IMG/VR virus record: IMGVR_UViG_3300009149_000110 | Span: 1-38,679 of that record | Length of the DNA stretch: 38,679 bases | Origin: a virus | Strand: one strand, 5' to 3' | Shown here: positions 631 to 38,679 of the stretch, in pieces | Layout of the letters: the number at the start of each line of letters is the position of its first letter | Numbering within the stretch: position 1 is the first letter of the stretch | Notes under the pieces: model-generated | Databases searched by the model: none | What the model saw: the letters and a program-made list of their open reading frames with translations, nothing else | What the model was told of the DNA's origin: nothing | Program-made: the position numbers and the translations under genes

Positions 631-1548
631 ATGAAAAAATTATTTGGACTTTTAGCAATTATGTTCACATTTGTAATGACTTCTTTTAGTCAGAATCAAA
701 TAAATGAAACAAATTTTAATCTAATTGTAGATGGTATATCGTCTACAGAATTCTTAGTTACTTATAATCCACAAGATCAGTTCAACCCAATGGGTGCTGG
801 TGTTCTTCTTGTTCATTTTGATAATCCATTAGAAAGTATTGATTTTCAATGTGATGGTATAATCGGTGTAAATAATATGCTAGACTATTATACTGAACCA
901 AAATTAGGGGTTGGTATTAATATGATTAGAATAGATTATCATATGATGGGTGCAGGTGAAGTTAATATAATTGCAACAAGTTTTGATGAAGATATTTATC
1001 TTGCTACTAAATTTAATGCACAAGACACTTTAAATTCGTGGAATGATGCAATGATAATAGGTATAGAATATGGGTTAAAAGAAGGTATTGCATCAGTTGA
1101 TACAGATTCTATTTATCTTGCGGGTGTTAATTCAGTAGATACAACAATGTATATTAATAAAGGAATTAATTCGGTTATTATACCTGAATGTAATTTGGAT
1201 GCTGCTTATTTAGAAGGTCAGATGTCTGTTAATATGGATTCTATTGATATATTTTATAATGTTGGGTTTGCTGATGGTCAGCTTAAATCAGCACAAACTA
1301 CAAGTATGAAATCAACTACACTGGATATTGGACTTAGTGCATATCCTAATCCAGTAGATAATGGAACTGATGTAACTATTGATTGTTTTGATTTCTTAAA
1401 AGTAGATGTCTATAACATATCAGGTGTGAAAATGTTTACTACTGAATCACATTATGTTTCCACCAATAATTTAACTAAAGGTGTATATGTTTTTGTAGTA
1501 TGGGATCGTAACAATAATACAGATATAACTAAAATAATAGTTAAATAA
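631..1548 (+). CDS. Secreted protein with T9SS type A sorting domain (paralogue 1)
   Basis: This 305-residue protein has a Sec signal peptide (about 1-20, ending TSFSQ) and a C-terminal domain at about 232-305. That domain has the hallmarks of the type IX secretion sorting signal (Por_Secre_tail family): the YPNPV motif at 238-242, a central VDVYNISG, then LTKGVYVF and a final KIIVK. In Bacteroidota such domains send proteins across the outer membrane for release or attachment at the cell surface. The middle is beta-rich and low in Lys, with short repeats around SVDT and a few Gly/Asn turns at about 150-200. It is a paralogue of the next gene, with similar signal, length and end. The function of the middle part is not recognised. 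A T9SS signal on a phage gene suggests a protein displayed by or shed from the infected host. Confidence 0.85.
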   Translation: MKKLFGLLAIMFTFVMTSFSQNQINETNFNLIVDGISSTEFLVTYNPQDQFNPMGAGVLLVHFDNPLESIDFQCDGIIGVNNMLDYYTEPKLGVGINMIRIDYHMMGAGEVNIIATSFDEDIYLATKFNAQDTLNSWNDAMIIGIEYGLKEGIASVDTDSIYLAGVNSVDTTMYINKGINSVIIPECNLDAAYLEGQMSVNMDSIDIFYNVGFADGQLKSAQTTSMKSTTLDIGLSAYPNPVDNGTDVTIDCFDFLKVDVYNISGVKMFTTESHYVSTNNLTKGVYVFVVWDRNNNTDITKIIVK

Positions 1549-1626: not shown

Positions 1627-2514
1627 ATGAAAAAATTAATGATTCTTTTAGTCGTATTGTTTGCATTTACATTGACTTCTTTTAGTCAAAAAACCGTGAA
1701 TACTGCAAATTGGTATCTTTTTGTAGATAATGTTTTATCAAGTGATACTTTATTTGATGTGACATTTAATCCTACTAATCCTGCTACTCCATCGAGTGAA
1801 GGTTTTGTTATTGTTGTTTTTAATAACAAATTATATGATAATGTTTCCGTAAGTGCTTCTATGGTTTATTATGGAATTGATATTACACCATCGTATATTG
1901 ATCCAGTTAATATGAAAGGTATTGGTTGGTTTAAGATGAATTATACTGCACAAAATCCTGGTTCAGCATATATTTATGTAAATACTACATCCTATGTAGC
2001 ACCTAAATATACTGCTGCTGATACTCTTTCAGCATTTAATAATGGTGAATCTTCAGTTGATATTGATTATTACTTTAATAATGGATATGATGCTGGTGTT
2101 AATGTTGGGGTTGCTTCAGTTGATACCACAATATATTTTAATAATGGCGTTGCTTCAGTAGATACATTAATATATTTTTATAATGGTCAACTTTCAATTA
2201 ATATTGATTCTATTTTTGAAGTTGGATTCCTTTATGGTAAATCAACTGATGTTGTAAATATTATAGAAGATGCAACATTTAGTGTATTCCCTAATCCTGT
2301 AAACCAAGGTGATAATGTAACTGTTTCTACATCTTCTTTCACCGTTAATGTGGATGTATATAATACTATTGGACAGTTGGTACACAAGGAAAATGGTAAT
2401 ATTTTTTCTACTAATGGATTTGAAAAAGGACTTTATGTACTAGTTATTACTGATGATGATGGAAATGTAATTACTGATACAAATAGAAAGACTGCAAAAA
2501 TTATAGTACGATAA
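1627..2514 (+). CDS. Secreted protein with T9SS type A sorting domain (paralogue 2)
   Basis: This 295-residue protein starts with a Sec signal peptide (about 1-20, again ending TSFSQ). It ends in a sorting domain at about 215-295: FPNPV at 221-225, VDVYNTIGQ at 242-250, FEKGLYVL at about 265-272, and a terminal KIIVR. The middle holds short repeats such as GVASVDT followed by IYFNNG, at about 140-195, which look like a small beta solenoid or stalk. It parallels the gene just upstream along its whole length, but the two have diverged well beyond a recent copy. The start follows an A-rich leader and no strong Shine-Dalgarno site, as is usual for Bacteroidota. The role is unknown; surface display or secretion from the infected cell is inferred from the signal. 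Confidence 0.85.
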   Translation: MKKLMILLVVLFAFTLTSFSQKTVNTANWYLFVDNVLSSDTLFDVTFNPTNPATPSSEGFVIVVFNNKLYDNVSVSASMVYYGIDITPSYIDPVNMKGIGWFKMNYTAQNPGSAYIYVNTTSYVAPKYTAADTLSAFNNGESSVDIDYYFNNGYDAGVNVGVASVDTTIYFNNGVASVDTLIYFYNGQLSINIDSIFEVGFLYGKSTDVVNIIEDATFSVFPNPVNQGDNVTVSTSSFTVNVDVYNTIGQLVHKENGNIFSTNGFEKGLYVLVITDDDGNVITDTNRKTAKIIVR

Positions 2515-4452: not shown

Positions 4453-4899
4453 ATGAAAAAATTTTTAATGTATTTAACAGTTATTGTATTTAGTATGTTC
4501 GTATTTACTTCTTGTGTTAAACCACCTGAATGTGAAACATATAATACAGGTGATGTAATCTTTCACGACAATGGACCATCTTGGGCATGGGATGGATGTT
4601 ATATTGAAGTTGATTGGAATGACGGTAGTTATAATTCAGTAACATTTTATAATACTAAATCCTATTATGATAAAGCAGCAGGTAGGGCTGAAGTTTATAT
4701 GGAATGGGAAGATGCAGATAATTATTATTGGAATTATGGGTATATCAATTTAATACAATGTGGTACAGTTGATGCTTATTGTAATTGGAGTAAAAAGAAA
4801 TCAACTGAAGTTTCTGGATTTATAATTGAAAAAAGTGGGTCAGTATTAAAAACTGATATTACATCAAAAGAAGAATTTAGAAAAACAATCATAGAATAA
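4453..4899 (+). CDS. Small predicted lipoprotein
   Basis: The 148-residue product starts with a lipoprotein signal: basic start, hydrophobic core and a lipobox ending at Cys21 (FTSC). The mature part is rich in Trp, Tyr and Asp (for example WDGCYIEVDWNDG) and looks beta-stranded, with a short charged tail. Three more cysteines at about 27, 54 and 110 could pair in the periplasm. It has an A-rich leader and its own terminator just downstream. Lipid anchoring to the host envelope is inferred. A role such as superinfection exclusion is possible but not shown by the sequence. Confidence 0.8.
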   Translation: MKKFLMYLTVIVFSMFVFTSCVKPPECETYNTGDVIFHDNGPSWAWDGCYIEVDWNDGSYNSVTFYNTKSYYDKAAGRAEVYMEWEDADNYYWNYGYINLIQCGTVDAYCNWSKKKSTEVSGFIIEKSGSVLKTDITSKEEFRKTIIE

Positions 4900-5387: not shown

Positions 5388-5672
5388 ATGAATACACATA
5401 GAAAACTATGGAAGGTAGTGCAAACTCATAAGATGGGAGCACAAGCCCCAAAGTATTTCGTTGAAACGGAATATTTTATCGTGAAATCCAAGTCTACCAG
5501 GGAAAATAAAGAGGTAGAAGAATTAATGGCTTTGAAAAAAGCAAAACAACTAACAAGACTTTCCGATTTTCCGGATGTCTGGACCATCAGAGTAGAACAT
5601 CAATCCAATAAATATTGGAATGCTAAAAGAGGAAAATGGTGGAACATAGAGGAAGGGGGGAAAGAAAAGTAA
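5388..5672 (+). CDS. Small basic protein with atypical base composition
   Basis: This 94-residue basic protein (VQTHKMGAQAPKYFVET, then KAKQLTRLSDFPDVWTIRVEH) has no recognised domain. It combines Lys/Arg-rich stretches with Trp, especially near the end (NAKRGKWWNIEEGGKEK), which could suit nucleic-acid binding. Its codons are clearly richer in G and C than those of the flanking genes, which suggests recent transfer or strong expression. The start at 5388 sits immediately after a perfect inverted repeat; no better upstream start is seen. A terminator follows within a few bases of the stop. Confidence 0.65.
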   Translation: MNTHRKLWKVVQTHKMGAQAPKYFVETEYFIVKSKSTRENKEVEELMALKKAKQLTRLSDFPDVWTIRVEHQSNKYWNAKRGKWWNIEEGGKEK

Positions 5673-5675
5673 ACA

Positions 5676-5704
5676 AAAAAGGGTGGATTTTTCCACCTTT
5701 TTTA
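5676..5704 (+). terminator. Intrinsic terminator
   Basis: GGGTGG (5681-5686) pairs with CCACC (5693-5697) plus flanking A-T pairs, and is followed by T-rich sequence. It closes the small gene ending at 5672. Confidence 0.7.
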
Positions 5705-5714
5705 TTAAAAATAC

Positions 5715-5745
5715 TTGTAGAATTAAATCTTTTTTCGTATATTTG
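5715..5745 (+). promoter_or_regulatory. Bacteroidota-type promoter
   Basis: TTG at 5715-5717, a 20-bp spacer and TATATTTG at 5738-5745, right after a terminator and 23 bases before the ATG at 5769. This is a clean unit start. Confidence 0.7.
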
Positions 5746-5768
5746 TATATAACAAAAACAGTAATTAT

Positions 5769-6182
5769 ATGATAGATTTGACTTCAGAATATAGGGTTTT
5801 ACCAGAACACATTAGATTTTCTAAAGGAATAAAAAGTGTATGTGTATCTACTTGTTTAAATTACTTTGGTATTACTCCTAATACATATAATTATACATCT
5901 TCTTCTAAAAATAGAACAGCTTATATTAATATATTGAGGAATAGAAGTTATTCAGTTAGAAGTAGAGTAACTGAATTTAAAGTAAAAAAGTTTAAAACTA
6001 CATTAACAGAATTACGATATAATATGAGAAAATCAAATTATCAACAAAATGATTATTTCATAGTATATGTAGCTAATAAAGGTGCAGCTCATTTAATAGT
6101 TTTAAACGGTAATGGTGAAACAGTTATTGATACTGCACCAAAATGTCGATGGAGAGTGGCACAAATACACAAAGTTTTTTAG
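5769..6182 (+). CDS. Small protein, possible papain-like (Cys/His/Asp) fold
   Basis: This 137-residue protein has a Cys pair near the N-terminus (SVCVSTCLNYFG, about 23-34) and, after about 80 residues, AAHLIVLNGNGETVIDTAP. The order Cys on a helix, His on a strand, then Asp is that of papain-like peptidase and transglutaminase folds. Phages often carry small proteins of this layout. No firm family match can be made by eye, so enzyme activity is only a suggestion. It is the first gene after a clear promoter and terminator pair. The next frame starts three bases after its stop. Confidence 0.65.
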   Translation: MIDLTSEYRVLPEHIRFSKGIKSVCVSTCLNYFGITPNTYNYTSSSKNRTAYINILRNRSYSVRSRVTEFKVKKFKTTLTELRYNMRKSNYQQNDYFIVYVANKGAAHLIVLNGNGETVIDTAPKCRWRVAQIHKVF

Positions 6183-6184
6183 AT

Positions 6185-6592
6185 ATGGATGTAAGAGAAA
6201 TAAAAGAAATTTATAATAGAATCGTTATAAGAATTGATAAGACTGATGATGAATTATTGTTTCATTTAGATGATGGTTCACGATGGAAAATGTATCATAG
6301 ACAAGATTGTTGTGAATATGTAACACTTGATGATGTGTGTGGTGATCTTAATGATTTACTTGATAGTCCTATACTTAAATTTGAAGAAGTTTATCAATAT
6401 AGTAATAAAAATGATTCTAATTCTTTTACCTGGACATTCTATAAAATAGCAACAATAAAAGGACAAGTTGATTTAAAATGGTATGGTACAAGTAATGGGT
6501 ATTATTCTGAATCAGTTAATATAGAACAAATAAAAGACCCTGACCCAATAGAAATCCAAAGAAGTAAAAAAATTAAAAATTTATTAAAATAA
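6185..6592 (+). CDS. Acidic hypothetical protein
   Basis: A 135-residue protein beginning MDVREIKEIYNRI. The frame is also open upstream to an ATG at 6143, but that start would overlap the preceding gene by 40 bases. ATG at 6185, three bases after the upstream stop, is the better choice. The protein is mixed alpha/beta with Asp-rich stretches (DKTDDELLFHLDDGSRW) and Cys residues at about 36 and 48. It has no signal or membrane segment. I do not recognise a family. It is probably co-transcribed with the gene at 5769. Confidence 0.65.
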   Translation: MDVREIKEIYNRIVIRIDKTDDELLFHLDDGSRWKMYHRQDCCEYVTLDDVCGDLNDLLDSPILKFEEVYQYSNKNDSNSFTWTFYKIATIKGQVDLKWYGTSNGYYSESVNIEQIKDPDPIEIQRSKKIKNLLK

Positions 6593-10031: not shown

Positions 10032-10385
10032 ATGAATGTATTAGTTGTAGATGATAATCCCACAAATAGACTTCTTTTAAAATATATGATTACAAATGAA
10101 GGTCACAATGTGGAAGAAGCTGAAGATGGTATTTATGCAGTTGAAATGGTTAAAGAAAAAGAATACGATTTAATTTTTATGGATATGATGATGCCAAAAA
10201 TGAATGGTTATTTAGCAACTAAACATATTAAAGAAATAAATCCCGATATCCCGGTGTATGTTGTTTCAGCATATAAAAAAGAAGATTTTCCTGCTGATTG
10301 GCAGAGTGTTGAATATGAAGATGTATTATCTAAACCAGTATCAATAGGTATAATTTCAAATATATTAAATAAACACAATATATAA
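10032..10385 (+). CDS. Stand-alone response-regulator receiver domain
   Basis: The 117 residues form one complete receiver domain with no output domain. All key residues are present: acidic pair Asp7-Asp8 (VVDDN), phospho-acceptor Asp51 (FMDMMMPKMNG), switch Ser79 (VVSAYK) and Lys101 (LSKPV). Such domains accept phosphate from a histidine kinase. A single-domain type acts by docking on a partner or by draining phosphate from a host phosphorelay. No kinase gene is visible in the window. The short spacing (28 bases) to the gene before it suggests one operon. The call is firm; the role in infection is inferred. Confidence 0.93.
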   Translation: MNVLVVDDNPTNRLLLKYMITNEGHNVEEAEDGIYAVEMVKEKEYDLIFMDMMMPKMNGYLATKHIKEINPDIPVYVVSAYKKEDFPADWQSVEYEDVLSKPVSIGIISNILNKHNI

Positions 10386-13224: not shown

Positions 13225-14322
13225 ATGAAAAAGATATTATATATTTTAGTATTATTAATTTTTACATATAGTTGTTCAAGTAAGAAAGCTGCAATTAAAG
13301 AAGAAAAAAGTATGGATTATACTTTAGAAGAAATTATTTCAGATCAAAGAAGAGATGATATTGGGTTTGGTTCAGAAGAACCCCATATGGAAGATTTAAA
13401 TACTTCAACTACTAAAGATGAATCAAACGGTATGAAAGATGTAGAAATGCAATTATCTGGACCATATAGACCATTAGGAACATTAGTATATAAAGTGGAT
13501 TCAATTTTAACTATTGGTGTTGTATCCAGGGTTGAAGCAAGAATAATTAAACAAGTAAGTGATGAAACTACAGAACAATTAATTTCATTAACAGCACATA
13601 CTTCAACTGGTATTATTTATGAAGAAAGAATAGAAGTTGGTAATATAATGGATATGGAATTAAAATCATTAGAATTAGACGCTTTTACAATAAATAAGAT
13701 AACAGATGATGAACAATTAGTTGACGAAAATGATATTACATTTTGGTTATGGAGTGTTACAGCAAATAAAGTAGGTGATTATAATTTAATAATGACAGCA
13801 AAAATAAAAGATTATGGTCCAAGTAGAAATGTAATTATATTTGATAAACAAATAAATGTGAAAAATAAACCTAAGAAAAAATATACTGTAATATTCACAC
13901 CCCCTGACAATATAAAAAGATATAATGAAATTGAAATTGAATTAGATTTAGTTGAAATGAATCCATATGTTTATAATTTTGAATGGGGTGGTGAAGGTAA
14001 AGTTGTAATAAATTTCGGTGGTAATGTTATTGTAACATCAGATGAAAATATTATTAATGATAATAAATCAGCTTTCCATTATAAATGGATTATAAAACCA
14101 GAAGGTAAAGAAAAAGTAATACCCTTTAATATTAAAATAATAGGTGATTACGAAGATTTAATTATATTAGATGGTAATTTAATTATTGAAAAAAATATCA
14201 AAGAATCATTTAATAGATTTATAGATGGCGCAGTTAAAAGATGGTATTGGTTGTTTACAGCATTATTAATTCCACTTTTCGGATATATCAGAAAAAAATA
14301 TTTCAAGAAGAAATCCGACTAA
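13225..14322 (+). CDS. Large lipoprotein with C-terminal membrane helix
   Basis: This 365-residue protein begins with a lipoprotein signal (lipobox FTYSC, Cys17). It ends with a membrane helix (about 342-358, WYWLFTALLIPLFGYI) and a basic stop-transfer tail (RKKYFKKKSD). Between them lie an acidic linker (about 25-70) and two or three beta-rich domains, the second starting near YTVIFTPPDNIKRY. A lipid at one end and a helix at the other would hold the middle in the periplasm, possibly close to the inner membrane. No family is recognised. Its transcription start is unclear because a terminator lies just upstream and no TAnnTTTG box is seen. Confidence 0.75.
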   Translation: MKKILYILVLLIFTYSCSSKKAAIKEEKSMDYTLEEIISDQRRDDIGFGSEEPHMEDLNTSTTKDESNGMKDVEMQLSGPYRPLGTLVYKVDSILTIGVVSRVEARIIKQVSDETTEQLISLTAHTSTGIIYEERIEVGNIMDMELKSLELDAFTINKITDDEQLVDENDITFWLWSVTANKVGDYNLIMTAKIKDYGPSRNVIIFDKQINVKNKPKKKYTVIFTPPDNIKRYNEIEIELDLVEMNPYVYNFEWGGEGKVVINFGGNVIVTSDENIINDNKSAFHYKWIIKPEGKEKVIPFNIKIIGDYEDLIILDGNLIIEKNIKESFNRFIDGAVKRWYWLFTALLIPLFGYIRKKYFKKKSD

Positions 14323-36993: not shown

Positions 36994-38325
36994 TTATTTT
37001 TTCCCACCATTTCGTGATCCACTACTTCTACTTACTGAACCTGAACTTCTAGATGAACTACCTGAACTTCTACTTACACTTGAACTACTTCTTGAAGGTG
37101 TACTATAACTTCTACTTGAACTAGAACTTGATGGTCTACTATAACTTCTACTTGAACTAGAACTTGATGGTCTACTATATGTAGAACTTGATCTCGTAGT
37201 TGTTGAAGGTCTTGTATAAGAATTTGAACTTCTACTTGTACTTGAACTACTTGGTCTATTATAAGTTGCACTTCTACTAGGTTGTGTACTTCTTGTAACA
37301 GTTGTTGTTCTTTGTTGTGTTCTTGTAGCTTTATTATATGTTGGTTTACTACTCATTCTTGGTTTACTATAAGTAGGTGTATAAGACCTATTAGATTTTG
37401 AACCATCTTGTAATACTCTTGTATATGGTGATTTAGTTACTGTCCTATTAGCTGTACTTACATTTGACCTTGATACACTACTAGAACGAACTGTCATTGT
37501 ATTCTTTTTAGAATAAGTATTAGGTGTAACAAAACCACTTCTATATGTTTTAGTATATGGACTATTATAATATCTTCTTGAACCTAATGAACTAGATGCA
37601 TAATACCTACCATTACTTCTATAATTAGGATAGTGATTATAATAATTATAGTTTCTATAGTAAGGATAATAATTATAACTATAGTATCCATTATAATAAG
37701 GGTAATAATTATATCCATAATATCCACCATAATAATATGAATCATAATACCAAGGATCATAATGTGAATAATAATATGAGTGACCAAAATATAATCTTCT
37801 ATTTATTCTAAATTGCCATTCATAATCGTTATTATCTATGTAATAATTATTAACTACAGTTGTTTGTGCAGTTTCTTCTTGTAGAACAAAATTAATAGGA
37901 AATGTAAATTGAACATTTACTGCAACACCATTTTGCTTACCTGGTGTCCATTTTGGTGAATTCATTACAACTCTAATTGCTTCTGCATCTAAATTTGCTT
38001 GAACACTTTCTTCTACTTTAGCGTTTATTACTTCACCATTTTTATTCACAATAAAAGAAACAACCACTTTTCCTTGAATGTTGTTTTCTATTGCATATTT
38101 AGGATATATCACACTTTCTGCAATATATTGACGAAATTCTTTTGCATCTTTACCTTTAAAAGTTGGCATATCTTCTACAACCATAAAAACTTCTTCATCT
38201 TGTCCATATTGAATTCTTTCTTGTTCTATTCTATACTTCTCATAATCAGATAATTCCCTTTCTTGTGAATAAGAAAATGATATGAATAGAAAAGTACTTA
38301 ATAGTATTGCTAAAAACTTTTTCAT
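36994..38325 (-). CDS. Secreted protein with TonB C-terminal domain and Ser/Arg-rich tail
   Basis: This 443-residue protein has a Sec signal peptide (about 1-20, ending SFSYSQ). A TonB C-terminal domain covers about 55-150: FRQYIAESVIYPKYAIENNI, then GKVVVSFIVNKNGEV, then a conserved-looking WTPGKQNGVAVNVQFTFPI. A Tyr/Asn-rich region (about 165-245) and a Ser/Arg/Thr-rich repeat tail follow. Cellular TonB has its domain at the C-terminus and an N-terminal membrane anchor that contacts ExbB/ExbD. Here the anchor is replaced by a cleavable signal and the domain comes first. So it cannot drive transport in the usual way and may bind TonB boxes of outer-membrane receptors as a decoy. Attachment through the basic tail is possible. 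Confidence 0.85.
   Translation of the reverse strand: MKKFLAILLSTFLFISFSYSQERELSDYEKYRIEQERIQYGQDEEVFMVVEDMPTFKGKDAKEFRQYIAESVIYPKYAIENNIQGKVVVSFIVNKNGEVINAKVEESVQANLDAEAIRVVMNSPKWTPGKQNGVAVNVQFTFPINFVLQEETAQTTVVNNYYIDNNDYEWQFRINRRLYFGHSYYYSHYDPWYYDSYYYGGYYGYNYYPYYNGYYSYNYYPYYRNYNYYNHYPNYRSNGRYYASSSLGSRRYYNSPYTKTYRSGFVTPNTYSKKNTMTVRSSSVSRSNVSTANRTVTKSPYTRVLQDGSKSNRSYTPTYSKPRMSSKPTYNKATRTQQRTTTVTRSTQPSRSATYNRPSSSSTSRSSNSYTRPSTTTRSSSTYSRPSSSSSSRSYSRPSSSSSSRSYSTPSRSSSSVSRSSGSSSRSSGSVSRSSGSRNGGKK
37105..37176. repeat. Two exact tandem 36-bp repeats in the Ser-rich tail
   Basis: The 36-bp unit at 37105-37140 is repeated exactly at 37141-37176, coding for 12-residue units of Ser, Arg, Tyr and Pro. 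Copy number may vary by slippage without breaking the frame. Confidence 0.75.
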
Positions 38326-38373
38326 AATATTTAATTTATTTTATAATATAAGTGCAAATTTGATGCCGCAAAT

Positions 38374-38404
38374 AAAAAAAAAATCCAGTATTAAACTGGA
38401 TTTT
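38374..38404 (-). terminator. Terminator at the end of the fibre gene
   Basis: AATCCAGT (38382-38389) pairs with ACTGGATT (38395-38402). On the minus strand it is followed by a long T run; it includes the stop codon. Confidence 0.7.
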
Positions 38405-38679
38405 CTAATTCACTTATTCTTTGTTCTAATTCTGTAATTTTTGCACTTAATTGTTGAATAGATTTATGAAAATAAGGATACAATGTAGATGGCATAATTG
38501 TTAAATATGGATTATCTGGATCATCATCAGGAACTTCACCCGATTCTATAACCATATTAGGGATTAATGGTTGTACTTCTTGTGCAATCCATCCTGTTGT
38601 TTTTTCGGTTTTTTCTAAATCATCAATATAATAAAAAGACTTAACTGGTAAATTATTTAATATATCTAATGCATCTTCT
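38391..38679 (-). CDS. C-terminal S74-type intramolecular chaperone domain of a fibre protein, 5' part outside window
   Basis: The last 95 residues of a minus-strand gene are visible. They include LPVKSFYYIDD, GWIAQEVQPLIPNMV (a G-x-I-A-Q-E-V-Q core) and a final coiled coil (IQQLSAKITELEQRISELE). This is the end of a peptidase S74 (endosialidase chaperone) domain, which trimerises fibre proteins and then cuts itself off. The catalytic Ser would lie outside the window, so activity cannot be judged. It suggests that a tail fibre or similar trimeric protein is coded beyond the right edge. Confidence 0.85.
   Translation of the reverse strand, partial: EDALDILNNLPVKSFYYIDDLEKTEKTTGWIAQEVQPLIPNMVIESGEVPDDDPDNPYLTIMPSTLYPYFHKSIQQLSAKITELEQRISELENPV

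What the first reader, a model, noticed from the sequence alone, without database searches (positions are those of the whole stretch)
36994..38325. Secreted TonB C-terminal domain without membrane anchor: possible receptor decoy
A TonB domain directly after a cleavable signal peptide cannot connect to ExbB/ExbD, yet should still bind TonB boxes. It could block TonB-dependent receptors, stopping later phages or altering uptake. The long Tyr-rich and Ser/Arg-rich tail with exact 36-bp repeats may hold it to the wall or membrane.
Basis: inference. Interest (0 to 1): 0.75.

Follow-up and report, generated by a model that had tools for sequence, protein, structure and literature searches.

The report
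Phage envelope protein with optional TonB-domain
A large phage of Bacteroidota carries a gene for an exported protein that has a TonB receptor-binding domain but no membrane anchor; related phages carry the same protein with or without that domain, and it resembles a little-studied family of host outer-envelope lipoproteins down to its promoter, so it probably alters the host's outer membrane during infection rather than being just a TonB decoy.

Summary
ORF 36994-38325(-), 443 aa, has a signal-peptidase-I-type signal, a true TonB C-terminal domain (Pfam 1e-20; AlphaFold pLDDT 87; best PDB matches are TonB CTDs), no anchor, and a disordered Tyr-rich then Ser/Arg-rich tail with two exact 36-bp copies. 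It is a real, conserved phage gene: three other viral contigs encode the full architecture. But the TonB domain is an optional insert. Three further family members, two of them at the same syntenic locus as TonB-bearing ones, keep the signal peptide, an invariant QERELSDYEKYR motif and the tail, and lack TonB_C. The constant part resembles a Bacteroidota "GCYTQ" lipoprotein family encoded next to an OMPP1/FadL-type outer-membrane protein gene. Both carry a sigma-54-like -24/-12 promoter just upstream (phage 5/7; host 16/25 and, in a replication, 18/26; control ORFs 0/855). Some phages also carry the lipoprotein form. Best reading: an exported phage version of a host envelope protein, to which some phages added a TonB_C module that can dock on TonB-dependent receptors. 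Receptor jamming is possible (T5 Llp and periplasmic TonB fragments are precedents) but unshown. Phage-host homology of the low-complexity tail is not proven by sequence alone.

The parts
36994..38325 (-). whole gene, 443 aa exported TonB_C protein
   Evidence: full-length relatives
38353..38368 (-). sigma-54-like -24/-12 promoter element CGGCATCAAATTTGCA, ends 27 bp before the ATG
   Evidence: same element in 5 of 7 family members, 0 of 76 control phage ORFs
38266..38325 (-). signal peptide, residues 1-20 (predicted signal-peptidase-I cleavage SYS|QE; no lipobox)
   Evidence: sequence, alignment of 7 members
38218..38265 (-). residues 21-36, family signature; QERELSDYEKYR (21-32) identical in all 7 members; helix 27-40 in the model
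37876..38193 (-). TonB C-terminal domain (about residues 45-150; Pfam match 73-148); optional module in the family
37540..37848 (-). Tyr-rich region, residues 160-262, predicted disordered
36997..37539 (-). Ser/Arg-rich basic tail, residues 263-443, pI 12, predicted disordered
37102..37173 (-). two exact tandem copies of a 36-bp unit within the tail
38391..38678 (-). 3' end of an upstream gene with a Peptidase_S74 (tail-fibre chaperone) domain, 65 bp upstream on the same strand; runs off the window

Best explanation
The gene is a phage accessory ('moron'-type) gene for a protein exported to the host envelope. Its constant core (signal peptide, QERELSDYEKYR motif, disordered Tyr-rich and Ser/Arg-rich tail) is a phage counterpart of a Bacteroidota family of GCYTQ lipoproteins that are encoded directly next to an OMPP1/FadL-type outer-membrane protein gene and carry a sigma-54-like promoter; the phage gene has the same promoter type, so the host's RpoN polymerase would transcribe it. 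In the window and three other phages a Bacteroidota TonB C-terminal domain sits between the N-terminal motif and the tail. I infer that the protein works in the periplasm at the inner face of the outer membrane, the core supplying envelope localisation and the TonB_C module docking it onto TonB-dependent receptors (or other TonB_C partners), so that it modifies outer-membrane function during infection; blocking of receptors against later phages is one plausible outcome. Shown by sequence: export signal, TonB_C fold, domain optionality, single origin of the phage TonB_C domains, shared promoter element, host operon context. Inferred: homology of the core to the host family, RpoN dependence, location, receptor binding, physiological effect.
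For: TonB_C identity. Full-length phage relatives. TonB_C-less members with the same signature and tail; same syntenic locus with and without TonB_C (L091 and L093 with, L133 and L097 without; shared flanking genes). The four phage TonB_C domains form one clade (100/96) inside Bacteroidota TonB_C. After the N-terminal motif (88%), TonB_C is the best conserved region (67-71%, against 41-48% Tyr-rich and 49-58% tail). Host GCYTQ Tyr/Ser-Arg lipoproteins: 22 of 296 Bacteroidota genomes and 68 of 164 in one order; an OMPP1-like gene beside 23 of 26 and then 26 of 26 loci (PF03349). Sigma-54-like element: phage 5/7, host 16/25, controls 0/76 and 0/705; replication with the unchanged pattern on new host loci 18/26 against 0/74; Fisher p 7e-7, 8e-27, 5e-14. 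Phage contigs L190-L192 encode the GCYTQ lipoprotein form beside large, apparently virion genes.
Against: The phage-core profile scores host lipoproteins no better than locally shuffled copies in most cases, so the core-to-host link rests on shared layout and promoter and could be convergent. The phage proteins have no lipobox and no OMPP1 partner in the stretches held. Two of seven phage members lack the strict promoter pattern (L089 near-match, L094 not). The pattern was settled after seeing the first sequences; only the second host set is an independent test, its genomes are related, and several candidate start codons were allowed for family genes against one for controls. rpoN is present in every genome checked (46 of 46), so it does not discriminate. 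No binding or location data exist.
Confidence: 0.5

Rival explanations
1. Receptor decoy for superinfection exclusion: soluble TonB_C occupies TonB boxes of TonB-dependent receptors, jams them, and prevents adsorption or DNA entry of later phages that use them.
For: Export without anchor; TonB-type fold; precedents: T5 Llp jams FhuA from the periplasm and its gene lies next to the receptor-binding protein gene (PMC9586334), and here the gene lies 65 bp downstream of an S74 tail-fibre-type gene; periplasmic TonB fragments inhibit FhuA/FecA (Howard et al. 2001, cited in PMC11308372).
Against: TonB_C is missing from 3 of 7 family members; relatives are not next to tail-fibre genes; unanchored TonB_C proteins are common host proteins without known decoy function.
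Confidence: 0.22
2. Signalling or regulation: TonB_C acts as a periplasmic sensor partner, as in Bacteroidota M56/BlaR1 proteins that end in TonB_C, tuning a host envelope-stress response.
For: Many host TonB_C matches are in M56/BlaR1-like multi-pass proteins; sigma-54 promoters need activator ATPases tied to such signals (general knowledge); sigma-54 has been linked to control of the bacterial exterior (PMC3162934).
Against: No BlaR1/M56 partner gene seen next to the phage gene.
Confidence: 0.1
3. Virion component, for example a tail-tip or capsid decoration protein that reaches TonB-dependent receptors on adsorption.
For: Same strand as and next to tail genes in the window.
Against: Sec signal peptide in all members; no PHROG match; relatives sit outside structural modules.
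Confidence: 0.05
4. Lysis helper: the strongly cationic Ser/Arg tail (pI 12) destabilises the outer membrane at the end of infection.
For: Charge and disorder of the tail.
Against: Host proteins with similar tails are stably encoded by living cells; no lysis genes next to it.
Confidence: 0.05

Closest known systems
Bacteroidota GCYTQ Tyr-rich/Ser-Arg-rich lipoproteins encoded beside OMPP1/FadL-type (PF03349) outer-membrane proteins (no Pfam or NCBIfam model matched the example tested)
   Same: N-terminal export signal, Tyr-rich middle (both with an NNYY stretch), long Ser/Arg-rich basic tail, sigma-54-like promoter 20-50 bp upstream
   Different: Host proteins carry a lipobox and an OMPP1 neighbour; the phage protein has a signal-peptidase-I site, the RELSDYEKYR motif and sometimes TonB_C; sequence homology above composition not shown
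TonB energy transducers (PF03544/TIGR01352)
   Same: C-terminal domain sequence and fold
   Different: No N-terminal membrane anchor, no Pro-rich spacer; the domain lies mid-protein followed by 290 residues
Short signal-peptide + TonB_C proteins of Bacteroidota (annotated energy transducer TonB)
   Same: Exported, unanchored TonB_C
   Different: No Tyr/Ser-Arg tail; chromosomal
T5 Llp and T1-type Cor superinfection-exclusion lipoproteins
   Same: Phage-encoded, periplasmic (predicted), possible target is a TonB-dependent receptor
   Different: Llp is a small lipoprotein without TonB domain; no lipobox here
Anchored TonB encoded by the 735-kb phage LR756501 (L002) and contig L196
   Same: Phage-encoded Bacteroidota TonB_C
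   Different: Those have the anchor and a spacer, so could engage ExbB/ExbD

Membership tests
TonB energy transducer | TonB C-terminal domain | tested here: met
TonB energy transducer | N-terminal transmembrane anchor that engages ExbB/ExbD | tested here: not met
   only a signal peptide with a signal-peptidase-I-type site in all 7 members; by sequence inspection
TonB energy transducer | Periplasm-spanning Pro-rich spacer before the domain | tested here: not met
   about 25 residues between cleavage site and domain, no Pro-rich stretch
Host GCYTQ Tyr/Ser-Arg lipoprotein family | Tyr-rich region followed by Ser/Arg-rich basic tail after an export signal | tested here: met
Host GCYTQ Tyr/Ser-Arg lipoprotein family | Lipobox GCYTQ | tested here: not met
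   no Cys in the mature protein; phage contigs L190-L192 do have it
Host GCYTQ Tyr/Ser-Arg lipoprotein family | Sigma-54-like promoter just upstream | tested here: met
Host GCYTQ Tyr/Ser-Arg lipoprotein family | Adjacent OMPP1/FadL-type gene | tested here: not met
   none in the phage stretches held
Host GCYTQ Tyr/Ser-Arg lipoprotein family | Sequence similarity beyond composition | tested here: inconclusive
   E 8e-16 for one genome, but mostly within the range of local shuffles
T5 Llp/Cor superinfection-exclusion lipoproteins | Lipoprotein signal | tested here: not met
T5 Llp/Cor superinfection-exclusion lipoproteins | Binds a TonB-dependent receptor plug and blocks infection | not testable with these tools
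   needs binding and adsorption assays
Phage virion structural protein | Present in virions | not testable with these tools
   no PHROG match

The most novel reading that the evidence does not exclude
Phages of Bacteroidota repeatedly carry a sigma-54-driven copy of a host outer-envelope lipoprotein, and one lineage has adapted it by inserting an unanchored TonB domain that jams the host's TonB-dependent receptors as a class: a broad-spectrum superinfection-exclusion device switched on by a host stress regulator.
Probability: 0.15. Interest if true: 0.8.

Novelty: new variant of a known kind. Interest (0 to 1): 0.55.

Why it matters
TonB-dependent receptors dominate the Bacteroidota surface and serve as phage receptors in many bacteria. 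A phage gene family that pairs a host-like envelope protein and a sigma-54-like promoter with an optional TonB_C module gives a testable handle on how these phages alter the host envelope, and it points to an uncharacterised host operon (GCYTQ lipoprotein + OMPP1 protein) that phages have copied more than once.

Tried and rejected
Full-length protein search of viral contigs found nothing because of poor pattern choice; searching with the TonB_C domain alone found the relatives. A search with the Tyr-rich part alone found nothing. A six-sequence alignment was too diverse to search with. Idea that the gene is simply a host TonB picked up whole: rejected, no host protein with TonB_C plus this tail in 198 and 395 Bacteroidota genomes. 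Idea that TonB_C is the point of the gene: rejected for the family. Claim of sequence homology of the core to host lipoproteins: withdrawn to inconclusive after the shuffle control. T4-type late promoter TATAAATA: none upstream of this gene. rpoN presence as a discriminator: uninformative. No match in BFVD below E 0.001. Contig L159, which shares a protein with the window at 100% identity, did not match the window's right end, so the tail-fibre gene could not be extended. Literature: searches for phage-encoded TonB or TonB_C in Bacteroidota phages found no report.

Full report
1. The object. The window is a 38,679-bp virus record, GC 26%, with gp32-like, RtcB, tail-tube and Peptidase_S74 genes, that is, a fragment of a large tailed phage. 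The ORF 36994-38325(-) encodes 443 aa. Residues 1-20 are a signal peptide ending SYS|QE; there is no lipobox and no Cys. Residues 73-148 match TonB_C at 1e-20. A model from a 31-sequence alignment has mean pLDDT 87, and its significant PDB matches are all TonB-family CTDs, ahead of TolA domain III. In the full-length model residues 149-437 are disordered (only 7 sequences). Residues 160-262 are 37% Tyr; 263-443 are 36% Ser, 13% Arg, pI 12. Two exact 36-bp copies lie at 37102-37173.

2. An unanchored TonB_C is not rare. Bacteroidota genomes are full of TonB_C proteins, including short exported ones with nothing else (L007, L035, L051, L078, L086 and others). What is unusual is the long tail.

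3. The family. Searching viral contigs with the TonB_C domain gave three full-length relatives (L088, L089, L090; 67-71% identity in TonB_C, 54-58% overall). Searching with their alignment gave further contigs whose protein has the same signal peptide, the invariant QERELSDYEKYR, the Tyr-rich and the Ser/Arg-rich tail, but no TonB_C (L094/L095, L096, L097). Four contigs share flanking genes around it (L091, L093, L133, L097): two have TonB_C, two do not. So TonB_C is a module inserted or lost at one locus. The four phage TonB_C domains form one clade (100/96) within Bacteroidota sequences, which argues for one acquisition; the tree of the remaining protein cannot tell gain from loss. TonB_C is conserved better than the tail, as expected of a working domain.

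4. Host counterpart. A profile of the TonB_C-less phage proteins found a Bacteroidota lipoprotein with the same layout (L128). This host family (GCYTQ lipobox, Tyr-rich, Ser/Arg-rich tail) occurs in 22 of 296 Bacteroidota genomes and 68 of 164 genomes of one order, beside an OMPP1/FadL/TodX-type gene (PF03349) in 23 of 26 and 26 of 26 loci. The control matters: with locally shuffled host sequences the phage profile scores about as high, so sequence alone does not prove homology. No host protein combining TonB_C with such a tail was found in 198 and 395 genomes.

5. The promoter. Reading the upstream regions showed a -24/-12 sigma-54-like element. Scored against the textbook consensus it stands 20-35 bp before the ATG in six of seven phage members. 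With a strict pattern (GG[CT]A[CTA]N5TTG, 12-60 bp before the start) it is in 5 of 7 phage members and 16 of 25 host lipoprotein genes, against 0 of 76 and 0 of 705 control ORFs. On newly fetched host loci with the unchanged pattern it is in 18 of 26, against 0 of 74; Fisher p 7e-7, 8e-27 and 5e-14. This link does not depend on amino-acid composition and is the strongest evidence that phage and host genes belong together; it also predicts RpoN control. All 46 genomes checked have rpoN. Sigma-54 has been proposed as a controller of the bacterial exterior (PMC3162934), and a recent survey reports sigma-54 enrichment of the TonB group COG0810 in Flavobacteriia, unconfirmed (PMC12316311).

6. Phages carry the lipoprotein form too. 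A DNA pattern for GCYTQLA found three viral contigs (L190-L192) that encode the lipoprotein next to large, apparently virion genes, in an operon with another small exported protein and without the sigma-54 element.

7. Mechanism. Best supported: an exported envelope protein of phage origin whose core mimics a host outer-envelope protein and whose TonB_C module, where present, docks it at TonB-dependent receptors. Precedents for an effect: T5 Llp jams FhuA from the periplasm (PMC9586334), and periplasmic TonB fragments inhibit FhuA and FecA transport (Howard et al. 2001, cited in PMC11308372). Whether the result is receptor blockade, altered uptake or something else is open; I give the pure decoy model 0.22. 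A virion role is unlikely: signal peptides in all members, relatives outside structural modules, no PHROG match.

8. Novelty. TonB_C, phage superinfection-exclusion proteins and host envelope lipoproteins are each known kinds; the combination, the optional module and the shared sigma-54-like promoter are, as far as searched, undescribed. I rate it a new variant of a known kind.

Noticed in passing
window 631-1548 (+) and 1627-2514 (+): Two phage proteins with signal peptides and type IX secretion C-terminal sorting domains (PF18962, 8e-7 and 2e-7), each behind a Bacteroidota-type TTTG...TAnnTTTG promoter: the phage seems to use the host's type IX system to display or release proteins. The first recurs 100% identical in another viral contig (L159).
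   Followed up: partly
window 7856, 18233, 23308, 25981, 26325, 26789, 27642, 29486: Many genes, several in tandem, share an N-terminal M(I/K)xKFNEYxNES / INESLRDKM-type stretch, reminiscent (from memory, untested) of T4 capsid-targeting sequences of internal proteins; similar starts occur in L002 and L088.
   Followed up: no
L002 about 5587-6324; L196 about 898-1407: The 735-kb phage LR756501 and contig L196 encode an apparently complete membrane-anchored TonB beside large genes that look structural.
   Followed up: partly
L190, L191, L192: Phage contigs with a GCYTQ Tyr-rich lipoprotein in an operon with a small exported protein downstream of large, apparently virion genes.
   Followed up: partly
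L128, L134-L156, L162-L189: Host operon: sigma-54-like promoter, GCYTQ Tyr/Ser-Arg lipoprotein, OMPP1/FadL-type protein; the example lipoprotein matched no Pfam or NCBIfam model. Function unknown.
   Followed up: yes
window 10032-10385 (+): Stand-alone response-regulator receiver domain; a relative (33% identity) lies in L097, a contig of the TonB_C-less family member, and L089 has a receiver/phosphatase protein downstream of the family gene.
   Followed up: no
window 4453-4899 (+), 13225-14322 (+): Two further predicted phage lipoproteins.
   Followed up: no
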